This document shows, piece by piece, positions 19,317 through 37,148 of a stretch of DNA of 64,000 nt. This stretch comes from Fidelibacterota bacterium. GTDB lineage: Bacteria; Pseudomonadota; Alphaproteobacteria; Rhodospirillales; Rhodospirillaceae. The notes under the pieces were generated by a model. It was not told the origin of the DNA. It ran no database searches and worked only from the letters and a program-made list of their open reading frames with translations. Position 1 is the first letter of the stretch. The number at the start of each line of letters is the position of its first letter. Made by a program: the position numbers and the translations under genes. Location of the stretch: NCBI GenBank assembly GCA_947476895.1, contig CANJRX010000001.1, forward strand, positions 372,865 through 436,864. The letters are read 5' to 3'.

Positions 19317-19432
19317 GGTATTCGGGGGTTTGGGCATCGGCGACTTGACGCAGTGCGTCTAAATCGAATACCCAGAGCTTGTCATCGGCAGTGCCCCACC
19401 GTTGCGGGCAGATGGACAGGAGTTCTAAGGAC

Positions 19433-19768
19433 ATGACCTACGTCGTCACCGAAAATTGCATTAAGTGCAAGTATATGGACTGCGTCGAGGTATGTCCGGT
19501 CGACTGTTTCTACGAGGGTGAGAACATGCTGGTCATCCACCCTGACGAGTGTATCGACTGCGGCGTATGCGAACCCGAGTGCCCGGCCGAGGCCATTGTG
19601 CCCGATTCGGACGAATCTGCCGCCGCCTGGCAAGACATCAACAAGGATTACGCGGAAAAGTGGCCGAATATCACGGCCAAGGGCCCCACCCCGCCAGATG
19701 CGGACGAGTGGAAGGATAAACCCAATAAAAAAGAACTACTTAGCGCCAATCCCGGAAGCAACGCCTAA
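19433..19768 (+). CDS. fdxA: Seven-iron ferredoxin FdxA
   Basis: A 111-residue ferredoxin. The cysteine pattern C9, C12, C17, C21, C25 and C40, C43, C46, C50 is that of the [3Fe-4S][4Fe-4S] ferredoxins of the Azotobacter FdI/FdxA type, with the usual long C-terminal extension. The start at 19433 follows AAGGA closely; a longer in-frame start at 19379 adds nothing family-like. It could serve as an electron carrier for the KorAB oxidoreductase encoded about 5 kb downstream, which is an inference. Confidence 0.93.
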
Positions 19769-19785
19769 GCTTCATCTAGGGCTTT

Positions 19786-19797
19786 AAGAACGTTCTT
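19786..19797. promoter_or_regulatory. Perfect 12-bp palindrome (AAGAACGTTCTT)
   Basis: A perfect palindrome 17 nt after the fdxA stop, flanked by near-symmetric TTA/TAA. It looks like a dimeric repressor operator, but no promoter next to it is evident. It could also be part of an RNA stem. Confidence 0.35.
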
Positions 19798-19856
19798 TAA
19801 TCCACACAGGTGGCTTTCATCTGTTTTTGGACCCTCTTTTGTGATAGGTTAAAACC

Positions 19857-19888
19857 AATCCGTCGGGGAACCGGCGGATTATTTTTTC
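19857..19888 (+). terminator. Terminator downstream of fdxA
   Basis: The stem AATCCGTC / GGCGGATT (one G-U pair, 8 bp) continues into a GG..CC top and is followed by ATTTTTTC. It is about 90 nt after the fdxA stop and separates fdxA from the carD leader. Confidence 0.8.
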
Positions 19889-19968
19889 TCCGACGTCCTG
19901 TGTCAGCCTTTTACGGTAAGTCTTTGTAAAACCGTGATTTTTATGGCGAACGGCGGAGATTAGGAGCA

Positions 19969-20115
19969 TTCGGCCCGTTCTCACACCATCTGTGAGGATA
20001 GGTCAGCCTGAATCTTAGAGTGGAAGAGCCGGACCGCAGGCAGCGGAACCGGCCGTTGGGGGATCAGGCCTCACGGATGACCTAAGTAACCCTGGTATGG
20101 AGTGAGAGACCGAAC
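19969..20115 (+). promoter_or_regulatory. Structured leader RNA of carD with two exclusive folds (candidate cis-regulator)
   Basis: The leader can form a nested helix series: TTCGG 19969-19973 with CCGAA 20110-20114; TCTCAC plus CCAT (19979-19989) with ATGG plus GTGAGA (20097-20107); TAGGTCA 19999-20005 with TGACCTA 20078-20084; GCCTGA 20006-20011 with TCAGGC 20064-20069; GCCGG/CCGGC and CCGC/GCGG at the tip (20028-20053). The outer helix covers GGAG at 20099-20102, the likely ribosome binding site. The words CTCAC (19980, 20070) and GTGAG (19992, 20102) alternate. Neighbouring pairs could instead form two local hairpins: the first frees the GGAG strand, the second would re-pair part of it. 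I do not recognise a known riboswitch class. It could also be an independent ncRNA such as a 6S-like rod. Confidence 0.55.
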
Positions 20116-20646
20116 ATGCCCAAGACAGCAACAACAAAAGTAAAAGAAGTTAAAGCCCCGTTGCCCTTTTCTGCGGGCGACTTCGTGGTTTATCCGGCGC
20201 ACGGCGTCGGCAAAGTAACCAGCGTTGAAGCTCAGACCATCGCCGGCCAGAAAGTCGAACTCTTTGTCATCAGCTTTGAGCGCGACCGCATGACCCTGCG
20301 CGTTCCCGTCCGCAAGGTCGAGAACTCGGGTCTACGTAAGCTTTCGACCCGCAAAGTCATGGAAGCGGCTTTGACGACTCTGAAGGGCCGCGCTCGCGTG
20401 AAGCGCGCCATGTGGAGCCGTCGCGCTCAGGAATACGAAGCCAAGATCAATTCAGGTGATCCGGTGTCGATCGCCGAAGTGGTGCGCGATTTGCACCGCG
20501 GCGCATCGCAGCCGGAGCAAAGCTACAGCGAGCGCCAGATTTACGAACAAGCGCTTGAGCGCCTTGCGCACGAAGTCGCGGCCGTTGAGAAGATCAAACC
20601 CGAAGCGGCCACCGCCAAGCTGGAAAAGCTGCTCAACGCAGCCTAA
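20116..20646 (+). CDS. carD: CarD family transcriptional regulator (CdnL-like)
   Basis: A 176-residue protein with the N-terminal CarD/Mfd RNA-polymerase-interaction domain (GDFVVYPAHGVGKVTSVE, about residues 21-38) and a helical C-terminal DNA-binding half. CarD proteins stabilise the RNA polymerase open complex, notably at promoters with weak -10 elements in alphaproteobacteria. The gene has its own structured leader and its own terminator. The first 17 residues are Lys/Thr-rich and variable. Confidence 0.93.
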   Translation: MPKTATTKVKEVKAPLPFSAGDFVVYPAHGVGKVTSVEAQTIAGQKVELFVISFERDRMTLRVPVRKVENSGLRKLSTRKVMEAALTTLKGRARVKRAMWSRRAQEYEAKINSGDPVSIAEVVRDLHRGASQPEQSYSERQIYEQALERLAHEVAAVEKIKPEAATAKLEKLLNAA

Positions 20647-20667
20647 AGCTTTCGGAGCGAGAAAATA

Positions 20668-20706
20668 AAACGGCCTCGGTGCATCAGCTCGGGGCCGTTT
20701 GCTTTT
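20668..20706 (+). terminator. Terminator of carD
   Basis: Arms AAACGGCC (20668-20675) and GGCCGTTT (20693-20700), followed by GCTTTT, 21 nt after the carD stop. The symmetric A and T runs could make it work in both directions. Confidence 0.82.
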
Positions 20707-20715
20707 GGACACCGC

Positions 20716-21498
20716 ATGAAATTTCTAACCGTATTATTTTTCGTCCTGTTCGCAAGCGCGGCGTTTGCAGCCTCGCCTGATACCTTGCGCGATGGCGGTC
20801 ACGGTCCTGTTGCGACGGTGATTGACGCGGACACGGTGCGCCTTAAAGACGGCAAGGCCGATGTGCGCCTGGTTGGCATTCAGGGACCCAAGTTACCGCT
20901 GGGCCGCAAAGGCTTTGCCAAGTGGCCTTTGGCCGATGAAGCGCGCACGGCGCTGGTTGAAATGCTCAAAGGGCACGAGGTTGTTTTACGCCTCGGCGAA
21001 ACCGCGCAAGACCGCAATGGCCGGATAATCGCCCATATCATGCGGGATGATGGCCTTTGGATTCAGCATGAAATGCTGCGTCTGGGCTGGGCGCGCGTTT
21101 ATACTTTCCCCGATAATCGCCAGCTCGCCGCAGAATTATTCGCGGCCGAAAGCGAAGCCCGTGCGGCGAAGCGCGGTGTCTGGGCCGATACGTTTTATGC
21201 CGTACGCGCCGTAGAACCAGAAGCGCTCTCGAAAGATGCCGGTACATTTCAAATCGTCGAAGGCCGCGTGATGAGCGCCGCGAAAGTTCAGGGCCGCGTT
21301 TATCTCAACTTCGGAAGCGATTATAAAACCGACTTCACGGCGACCATCGTGCCGGAAGCGGTGAGTTTTTTCACCAAAGCCAAAACCGATCCTTTGTCTT
21401 TCAAAGGCAAAACGTTGCGCGTGCGCGGCTATCTCAGGAACTACAACGGTCCGGTGATCGACATCACGCACCCCGAACAGATCGAACTTGTGCCGTGA
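20716..21498 (+). CDS. Exported thermonuclease-family (SNase-like) nuclease
   Basis: A 260-residue protein. Residues 1-19 form a signal peptide (ending AFAA). The staphylococcal nuclease fold follows: IDADTVRLKD carries metal-binding acidic residues, VRLVGIQGPK replaces the usual VRLxGIDxPE, and later ETAQDRNGRIIAH supplies the catalytic arginine region. The second half (about 180-260) is an extra OB-like domain. The GIQGPK substitution at a usual acidic position could reduce catalysis. Its stop overlaps the next gene. Confidence 0.85.
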   Translation: MKFLTVLFFVLFASAAFAASPDTLRDGGHGPVATVIDADTVRLKDGKADVRLVGIQGPKLPLGRKGFAKWPLADEARTALVEMLKGHEVVLRLGETAQDRNGRIIAHIMRDDGLWIQHEMLRLGWARVYTFPDNRQLAAELFAAESEARAAKRGVWADTFYAVRAVEPEALSKDAGTFQIVEGRVMSAAKVQGRVYLNFGSDYKTDFTATIVPEAVSFFTKAKTDPLSFKGKTLRVRGYLRNYNGPVIDITHPEQIELVP

Positions 21499-37057: not shown

Positions 37058-37148
37058 TGGTGCCCGCTCCCGGACTTGAACCGGGACGCCACGATGAAGC
37101 GGCTACGGATTTTAAGTCCGTTGCGTCTACCAATTTCGCCAAGCGGGC
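37058..37148 (-). tRNA. tRNA-Leu (anticodon TAA), CCA encoded
   Basis: On the minus strand the acceptor stem GCCCGCT / AGCGGGC, the D arm with TTGGTAGACGC, the anticodon stem ACGGA-CTTAAAA-TCCGT (anticodon TAA), a long variable arm (GCCGC/GTGGC) and the T arm CCCGG-TTCAAGT-CCGGG all fold. The long variable arm confirms a class II tRNA. CCA is encoded at 37058-37060. Confidence 0.95.

What the first reader, a model, noticed from the sequence alone, without database searches (positions are those of the whole stretch)
19969..20115. Two-state structured leader RNA in front of carD
Seen directly: a set of nested helices (TTCGG/CCGAA; TCTCAC+CCAT with ATGG+GTGAGA; TAGGTCA/TGACCTA; GCCTGA/TCAGGC; GCCGG/CCGGC; CCGC/GCGG) spans 19969-20114. 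The outermost long-range helix buries GGAG, the probable carD ribosome binding site. The words CTCAC and GTGAG alternate (19980, 19992, 20070, 20102), so adjacent words can instead pair as local hairpins (19980-19996 and 20070-20106). Mutually exclusive folds around a Shine-Dalgarno are what riboswitches and attenuator leaders look like. I know of no described regulatory RNA for carD/cdnL. An independent 6S-like rod is the main alternative.
Basis: partly seen in the sequence, partly recalled or inferred. Interest (0 to 1): 0.75.

Follow-up and report, generated by a model that had tools for sequence, protein, structure and literature searches.

The report
Structured carD leader, three-way junction
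The messenger RNA for CarD, a protein that helps switch on ribosomal RNA genes, seems to begin in this group of bacteria with a long folded leader that evolution has kept in shape by matched base changes and that matches no known RNA family searched, which suggests that CarD output is tuned at the RNA level.

Summary
The predicted transcript starts near 19857 with a terminator-like hairpin (T1), then a compensated stem (H0 around H1, 19888-19958) and a three-way junction (19960-20085): closing helix PY, arm P0, arm P2-P3. The ribosome binding site lies outside. Free folding gives a three-way junction in 18 of 21 sequences, 152 of 840 shuffles. Against a tree-based null, H0, H1, PY, P0 and P3 covary (covariation reached in 0-4 of 300 simulations); P2 is merely conserved (85 of 300). 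A covariance model finds it in 23 of 317 genomes of the order, among them 19 of 19 of the genus and 3 held-out genomes of two other genera, each time just upstream of carD. Not 6S, no Rfam match. Whether it switches is unproven: in the window the 5' strand can pair with the start codon region instead, but only 5 of 18 leaders favour such pairing.

The parts
19433..19768 (+). fdxA-type ferredoxin gene upstream (in-frame ATG inside ORF 19379-19768)
   Evidence: ORF list; name from a recalled ferredoxin motif, not from a family search; the same motif precedes carD in 50 of 69 loci examined (18 without, several of them cut short; 1 without carD motif)
19806..19828 (+). T0: short hairpin ACAGGTG-GCTTT-CATCTGT plus T run, perhaps the terminator of fdxA
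   Evidence: read by eye; own-versus-cross z -3.94 for 19805-19813 x 19817-19828; not listed by the terminator scan
19842..19850 (+). predicted carD promoter, extended -10 TGA-TAGGTT; predicted +1 about 19857
   Evidence: inference; TG and TA columns invariant in 24 aligned rows, window included; the consensus promoter scan found no + strand promoter in 19760-20720
19857..19888 (+). T1: terminator-like hairpin AATCCGTCGG-GGAA-CCGGCGGATT + ATTTTTTC at the predicted 5' end of the transcript
   Evidence: terminator scan, 10 pairs; 7 of its pairs counted, 99.4% of cells paired over 24 rows, rows picked by a pattern for its 3' arm and T run; it hardly varies, so covariation says nothing (p=0.56)
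19888..19895 (+). H0 5' strand CTCCGACG
   Evidence: own versus cross p<5e-5; 7 of 8 pairs with double changes; covariation reached in 3 of 300 tree-null simulations
19951..19958 (+). H0 3' strand CGGCGGAG
   Evidence: as above
19913..19935 (+). H1 hairpin ACGGT...ACCGT; loop consensus about TAAGTnnTTGA
   Evidence: top of the unsupervised scan, z -6.94; covariation reached in 0 of 300
19960..19971 (+). PY 5' strand TTAGG..CATTC, closing helix of the three-way junction
   Evidence: covariation reached in 3 of 300, percentage paired in 28 of 300; z -4.83; present in the free MFE of the isolated region
20075..20085 (+). PY 3' strand GGATG.CCTAA
   Evidence: as above
19972..20004 (+). P0 arm: base GGCC/GGTC, then variable hairpin GTTCTCACA/TGTGAGGAT
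   Evidence: base p=2e-4, covariation reached in 2 of 300; free MFE
20006..20011 (+). P2 5' strand GCCTGA
   Evidence: p=0.0024, but conserved more than covarying: 85 of 300
20064..20069 (+). P2 3' strand TCAGGC
   Evidence: as above
20028..20053 (+). P3 hairpin GCCGG.CCGC-AGGCA-GCGG..CCGGC
   Evidence: p<5e-5; z -6.41; covariation reached in 4 of 300
20022..20027 (+). internal loop, 5' side, consensus GGAAGA
   Evidence: majority residues of the alignments, with exceptions
20055..20061 (+). internal loop, 3' side, consensus GTTGGGG
   Evidence: majority residues of the alignments, with exceptions
20099..20102 (+). Shine-Dalgarno GGAG, outside the junction
   Evidence: GAG invariant in 19 of 19 rows
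20110..20119 (+). start region CCGAACATGC, possible competing partner of 19966-19973
   Evidence: P(U-start) 0.68 in the window, >0.5 in 5 of 18; used in the MFE; no covariation
20116..20646 (+). carD/cdnL coding sequence, 176 aa
   Evidence: name taken over from the finding and recalled family motif, no family search was run

Best explanation
The roughly 259 nt in front of carD are its 5' untranslated region, folded into a lineage-specific structured RNA: a 5'-terminal hairpin T1, a compensated stem H0/H1, and a three-way junction (PY, P0, P2-P3) that ends 13 nt before the Shine-Dalgarno. It acts in cis on carD. Shown: the conserved fold, its compensatory changes, its fixed place before carD. 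Inferred: the junction folds first during transcription and keeps strand 19966-19973 occupied, leaving SD and AUG open; if the junction is opened, that strand can pair with CCGAACAUG and block initiation, so that whatever binds the internal loop (GGAAGA / GUUGGGG) or changes folding speed would set CarD output. The ligand or protein is unknown.
For: 34 junction pairs on a MAFFT alignment of 18 leaders: covariation 0.200 versus 0.135 +- 0.011, 0 of 500 shuffles, slid versions 0.040-0.091; T1/H0/H1 in 24 rows 0.234 versus 0.155 +- 0.014, 0 of 500. Tree-based null: covariation reached in 3 (H0), 0 (H1), 3 (PY), 2 (P0), 4 (P3) of 300. Free MFE is a three-way junction in 18 of 21 versus 152 of 840 shuffles. 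R2 hits 23 of 317 order genomes at E<=0.01, each just upstream of carD when coordinates are compared; six rows are not in the model's alignment: G001 and G004 of the genus, G026, G088, G020 here, and G089 weakly. Structure adds bits over a sequence-only model in 3 of 4 held-out leaders: 43.8/39.4, 42.3/34.7, 38.0/24.3. Long carD 5'UTRs are reported in relatives: 233 nt in Caulobacter, 266 nt in S. meliloti (PMC5324124, passages).
Against: No transcript data for this organism; the start is inferred and the promoter scan found none on this strand. The switch step is weak: in 18 full transcripts PY exceeds 0.5 in 4 and U-start in 5; before the start region is made PY exceeds 0.5 in 10; SD openness ranges from 0.02 to 0.96. 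H0 exceeds 0.5 in the free ensemble in 12 of 18. P2 does not covary beyond the tree null; percentage paired is reached by the null in 28 (PY), 31 (P3) and 10 (H0) of 300. The fourth held-out leader scores lower with structure (22.0 versus 24.0), and the E-values of R2 are lower than those of R3 only for L059. Forcing the model's pair register costs 0-9.5 kcal/mol in 11 genus rows but 12-50 in 11 others, where the register of PY differs. The region was bounded after PY was known. In the scan only 7 of the 16 best separate pairs are helices of this model plus T0, and one non-member (19802-19810 x 19962-19974, z -4.72) cannot be a helix of this transcript.
Confidence: 0.6

Rival explanations
1. 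Passive leader: the folds protect the 5' end and set mRNA stability or a constant translation rate, with no signal sensed.
For: T1 sits at the predicted +1 like a 5' stabilising stem; Magnetospirillum relatives L113 and L115 show a hairpin just after the promoter-like site without a U run (by eye); SD openness is not conserved.
Against: Unpaired positions with a clear consensus (GGAAGA, GTTGGGG, the H1 loop) are more than a passive stem should need.
Confidence: 0.35
2. Transcription attenuation at T1: the hairpin with six U at about +1 to +32 ends many carD transcripts early, and antitermination or start-site choice lets the rest through.
For: Terminator-like by scan; stem 99.4% paired and five T plus the following C invariant in 24 selected rows; a separate hairpin T0 could serve fdxA.
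Against: No competing strand upstream of T1 in the predicted transcript; T1 could simply end fdxA transcription; the U run is missing in some relatives; terminator-like sites were expected 1.5 times in shuffles of the region.
Confidence: 0.2
3. One reading: an outer helix (TTCGG/CCGAA, TCTCAC/GTGAGA, CCAT/ATGG) buries the SD and alternates with local CTCAC/GTGAG hairpins.
For: The words exist; the MFE of 19960-20120 closes with the start region; U-start probability 0.68 in the window.
Against: p=0.70 for the outer helix, p=0.014 for the SD hairpin; TAGGTCA/TGACCTA no better than shuffles.
Confidence: 0.1
4. An independent small RNA (6S-like or other) that happens to lie before carD.
For: Rod-like reverse strand fold, z -3.42; no 6S locus was found elsewhere in the window's own genome.
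Against: The terminator scan lists no site between P3 and carD; no Rfam match over cut-off; R2 hits only before carD among 317 genomes; 6S lies on another contig in 7 of 7 genus genomes with a hit.
Confidence: 0.04

Closest known systems
Riboswitches with three-way junction aptamers (class recalled, e.g. purine and TPP)
   Same: Compact three-way junction in a predicted 5'UTR, internal loop with a consensus, possible competition with the start region
   Different: No Rfam model matches; no known ligand; no conserved expression platform found; seen only before carD in a few genera
Long 5'UTR of cdnL in Caulobacter (233 nt) and Sinorhizobium (266 nt), PMC5324124
   Same: Same gene and similar length (about 259 nt predicted here)
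Antisense RNA AscarD of mycobacterial carD (PMC8820732, passages)
   Same: RNA-level control of CarD
   Different: Antisense RNA over the coding region, induced by SigF; here a sense-strand leader
6S RNA (RF00013)
   Same: Long paired RNA, linked in theme to RNA polymerase
   Different: No match here; at another locus in 7 of 19 genus genomes

Membership tests
Cis-regulatory structured 5' leader | conserved secondary structure with compensatory changes | tested here: met
   P2 alone does not pass the tree null
Cis-regulatory structured 5' leader | constant position upstream of one gene on the same strand | tested here: met
   23 of 23 R2 hits at E<=0.01 lie before carD (coordinates). Second carD copies: two exact leader strings absent in 10 of 10 loci, a weak test since some true leaders also lack them
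Cis-regulatory structured 5' leader | transcribed together with the gene | not testable with these tools
   only indirect: reported 233 and 266 nt UTRs in two relatives
Riboswitch | binds a small molecule | not testable with these tools
   needs in-line probing
Riboswitch | conserved mutually exclusive folds of an expression platform | tested here: inconclusive
   U-start >0.5 in 5 of 18; outer helix p=0.70
Riboswitch | matches a known aptamer class in Rfam 15 | tested here: not met
   no match over a family's cut-off in any leader searched (window and ten relatives)
6S RNA | RF00013 match | tested here: not met
6S RNA | independent transcript with own terminator | tested here: inconclusive
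   terminator scan lists only T1 in 19760-20720; no transcript data
Intrinsic terminator/attenuator (T1) | GC-rich hairpin followed by a U run | tested here: met
Intrinsic terminator/attenuator (T1) | conserved antiterminator pairing | tested here: inconclusive
   only by eye: a possible pairing of the T1 3' arm with the H0 5' strand is lost in several rows

The most novel reading that the evidence does not exclude
A new riboswitch-like or protein-sensing leader with a three-way junction controls CarD, giving a feedback from the translation or metabolic state to the factor that opens rRNA promoters, possibly in two stages: early termination at T1 and start codon masking by the released 5' strand.
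Probability: 0.25. Interest if true: 0.8.

Novelty: new member of a known kind. Interest (0 to 1): 0.52.

Why it matters
CarD/CdnL activates housekeeping and rRNA promoters in alphaproteobacteria (PMC8407463 and PMC5324124, passages). Controls on it described in the passages I saw are proteolysis by ClpXP in Caulobacter (PMC5324124, PMC10769358) and Clp plus an antisense RNA in mycobacteria (PMC8820732). A conserved folded leader on its mRNA would be a further control layer on a master factor for growth and could explain why carD has long 5'UTRs in alphaproteobacteria. The structure gives exact pairs to break and restore.

Tried and rejected
Rejected: 6S RNA. Rfam, permissive: in 19750-20750 three sub-threshold matches, one of them (STnc560, reverse strand, 13.6 of 55 bits) over the first part of the leader; in ten relatives four sub-threshold matches, of which only RF02450 on L058 (31.7 of 60 bits) overlaps a carD leader; I take these as chance. 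RNAalifold on the MAFFT alignment A1 gave a poor consensus of 12 pairs, I think because strands are misaligned. My own first model, a helix P1 between GGGTC (around 20001-20004) and GACC/ACCC downstream, had only p=0.021 and was given up when the closing helix PY appeared in the scan. R1, built with P1, still found carD leaders; 4 of its 19 hits in 297 order genomes (E 0.016-0.022) show no carD motif in their loci and I count them as noise. In the R2 family scan 1 of 25 hits (G086, E 0.06) lies far from its carD and is counted as noise. R2 finds 23 of the 68 family carD loci; the other 45 gave no match. A strand test by G-U versus A-C cells was weak (93 versus 65). Resemblance of T1 to 16S rRNA helix 45 (recalled sequence) was considered: the 18-nt core is kept in 10 of 24 rows, and the recalled rRNA 18-mer was found in 0 of 19 genus genomes, so it stays an untested remark. 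In genus g7 (L060-L062) parts of P0 and P3 look recognisable by eye, but R2 gives no hit there and R3 only 11.1 bits on L061.

Rows dropped: A1 has 18 genus leaders plus G066; G004 had not been fetched. A5 (18 rows) drops L019, whose contig ends inside the leader. A4 (24 rows) drops L019, L056 (no match to my T1 pattern) and L058 (left out by me, 24 of the 25 found). One search adds 3 of 4 held-out leaders; L056, only partly matched, was left out. L055 (G066) is probably a stray genus-g1 contig in a g7 MAG, so it is not evidence for g7.

Literature: searches listed no paper on structure in a carD or cdnL leader (listed 20 of 74, 20 of 31, 12 of 97, 4 of 5, 3 of 3, 6 of 6 and 8 of 274 papers); the library holds open-licence papers only. 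Papers seen: PMC5324124, PMC8407463, PMC10769358, PMC8820732 as passages; PMC5069720 one passage, unrelated; PMC3616915 searched for carD without an occurrence; the rest as listings. That R. sphaeroides CarD represses its own promoter is recalled, not seen.

Full report
What was asked. The finding is a proposed two-state leader RNA at 19969-20115 before carD. The words and the gene are there. The span itself folds only slightly better than shuffles on the + strand (z -1.63, 14 of 200). In the window the only Rfam match over a cut-off is a tRNA at 37061-37148; the permissive scan of 19750-20750 gives three sub-threshold matches.

Relatives. The window lies in G000, contig 1, of a genus with 19 held genomes. 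Named relatives found with the CarD protein (best 80 of 569) include Rhodospirillaceae and Rhodospirillales MAGs, Magnetospirillum, Thalassospira and Azospirillum. A ferredoxin motif precedes carD in 50 of 69 loci. I collected carD upstream regions from the family. In the genus the distance from the ferredoxin stop to carD is 334-369 nt in most and 426 and 496 nt in two, and conservation is patchy.

Anatomy. Reading downstream from the ferredoxin gene (ends 19768): a short hairpin T0 (19806-19828, by eye); a promoter-like extended -10 TGATAGGTT (19842-19850), TG and TA invariant in 24 aligned rows, although the consensus scan finds no + strand promoter here; T1, a terminator-like hairpin (stem 19857-19880) with six T, beginning at the predicted +1; then H0 (19888-19895 with 19951-19958) enclosing H1 (19913-19917 with 19931-19935); then the junction 19960-20085; then 13 nt, GGAG at 20099 and AUG at 20116. 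The predicted leader of about 259 nt compares with 233 nt in Caulobacter and 266 nt in Sinorhizobium (PMC5324124, passages).

Which helices are real. Four tests. (b) An unsupervised scan of 7328 window pairs: 51 pairs are below z -3.5 and 2 above +3.5. Best are H1 (-6.94) and P3 (-6.41); PY (-4.83), H0 (-4.58), P2 (-3.96), T0 (-3.94) and P0 (-3.78) are among the 16 best separate pairs, but 9 of those 16 fit no helix of the model, and one of the 9 (z -4.72) is impossible in this RNA; the scan alone does not prove PY. (c) Counts on plain MAFFT alignments: junction 78.4% of cells paired, 14 pairs with double changes (5 of 500 shuffles reach this), pair types reached by 32 of 500, covariation 0.200 against 0.135 +- 0.011 and 0 of 500; T1/H0/H1 covariation 0.234 against 0.155 +- 0.014, 0 of 500; TAGGTCA/TGACCTA 56.1% paired, 242 of 500. 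(d) Simulation along a tree with independent sites: covariation reached in 3 (H0), 0 (H1), 3 (PY), 2 (P0), 4 (P3), 85 (P2) and 66 (TAGGTCA helix) of 300. Examples of compensation seen in the rows: PY CGTTCG/CGGACG, CATTCG/CGGATG (window), CGTTCG/CGAACG (L021), AAAT.CGCG/CGCGATTT (L018), CGTCTCG/CGGGATG (L029); H0 CTCCGCCG/CGGCGGAG, CTGCCG/CGGCAG (L018), CTTTGCCGT/ACGGTAAAG (L025), CTCTCGCGT/ACGCGGGAG (L024).

The fold. Without any constraint the minimum free energy structure of the junction region is a three-way junction in 18 of 21 sequences, 152 of 840 shuffles (the region was bounded after PY was known; exceptions L015, L058, L059). The window's own isolated region gives it, with mean pair probabilities 0.82 (PY), 0.96 (P0), 0.76 (P2), 0.99 (P3). 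In whole transcripts H0 exceeds 0.5 in 12 of 18.

Distribution. Model R2 (34 pairs, 18 rows) finds 25 of 73 family genomes at E<=0.1, of which 24 are carD leaders and one (G086) is not, and 23 of 317 order genomes at E<=0.01, all carD leaders: 19 of 19 of the genus (G001 and G004 not in the model's alignment), G066, and G026, G088 and G020 of two other genera, also not in the alignment. The scans use strict filters, so weak members may be missed. Structure adds bits over a sequence-only model in 3 of 4 held-out leaders and loses 2 bits in the fourth. Second carD copies in the genus lack two exact leader strings in 10 of 10 loci.

How it may work. Shown: a conserved RNA fold, fixed before carD, that leaves the SD outside. 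Inferred: cis control of carD. In the window the PY strand has probability 0.89 when the RNA stops at -18; in the full transcript PY falls to 0.01, pairing with the start region rises to 0.68, and the AUG is free only 0.18. That gives an order-of-folding switch: junction first and start open, or junction lost and start covered. Across 18 leaders this is not general (PY >0.5 in 10 before the start is made and in 4 full transcripts; U-start >0.5 in 5), so I hold a true switch at about one in four. T1 at the very 5' end is a second possible control point; it may equally be a stabilising stem or a terminator for read-through from the ferredoxin gene.

What it is not. 6S RNA: no match here; in the 7 of 19 genus genomes with a 6S hit the locus is on a contig other than the carD contig, and none was found in the window's own genome. 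Rfam: no consistent family in ten relatives. Print: searches list no description of a structured carD/cdnL leader, within an open-licence library and capped lists; PMC10769358 (passages) finds promoter control not sufficient and proteolysis important in Caulobacter, with 0 occurrences of the word UTR.

Verdict. The novelty is a new RNA family of a known kind, a structured 5' leader, on a gene of global importance.

Noticed in passing
window 19857-19888; 24 rows of alignment A4: A terminator-like hairpin sits at the predicted carD transcription start, with five T and the following C invariant in the selected rows; Magnetospirillum relatives L113 and L115 show a hairpin there without the T run (by eye).
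   Followed up: partly
window 19913-19935: The H1 loop consensus TAAGTnnTTGA is still recognisable where the stem is lost (g7, L060-L062), so it may also act at DNA level or bind a protein.
   Followed up: no
L012 (end of G001:C5) and L019 (end of G001:C54): In G001 the two halves of the carD leader appear at two contig ends, broken near the P0 arm, perhaps an assembly break at the hairpin.
   Followed up: no
L055 (G066:C252): A genome placed in genus g7 carries a carD and leader typical of g1 plus a second partial carD on another contig (C181); probably a stray contig.
   Followed up: partly
L030-L033, L035-L041: Several congeners have a second CarD-like gene, 45-75% identical to the first; two exact leader strings are absent from 10 of these loci.
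   Followed up: partly
window 19802-19810 x 19962-19974: Strong own-versus-cross pairing signal (z -4.72) between a stretch upstream of the predicted promoter and the leader; unexplained.
   Followed up: no
window 19960-20120, - strand: The reverse strand folds better against shuffles (z -3.42) than the sense strand (z -1.63).
   Followed up: no
G000 and the other 18 genus genomes: A recalled 16S helix 45 18-mer is absent from all 19 assemblies; the rRNA 3' end may be missing or different there.
   Followed up: no
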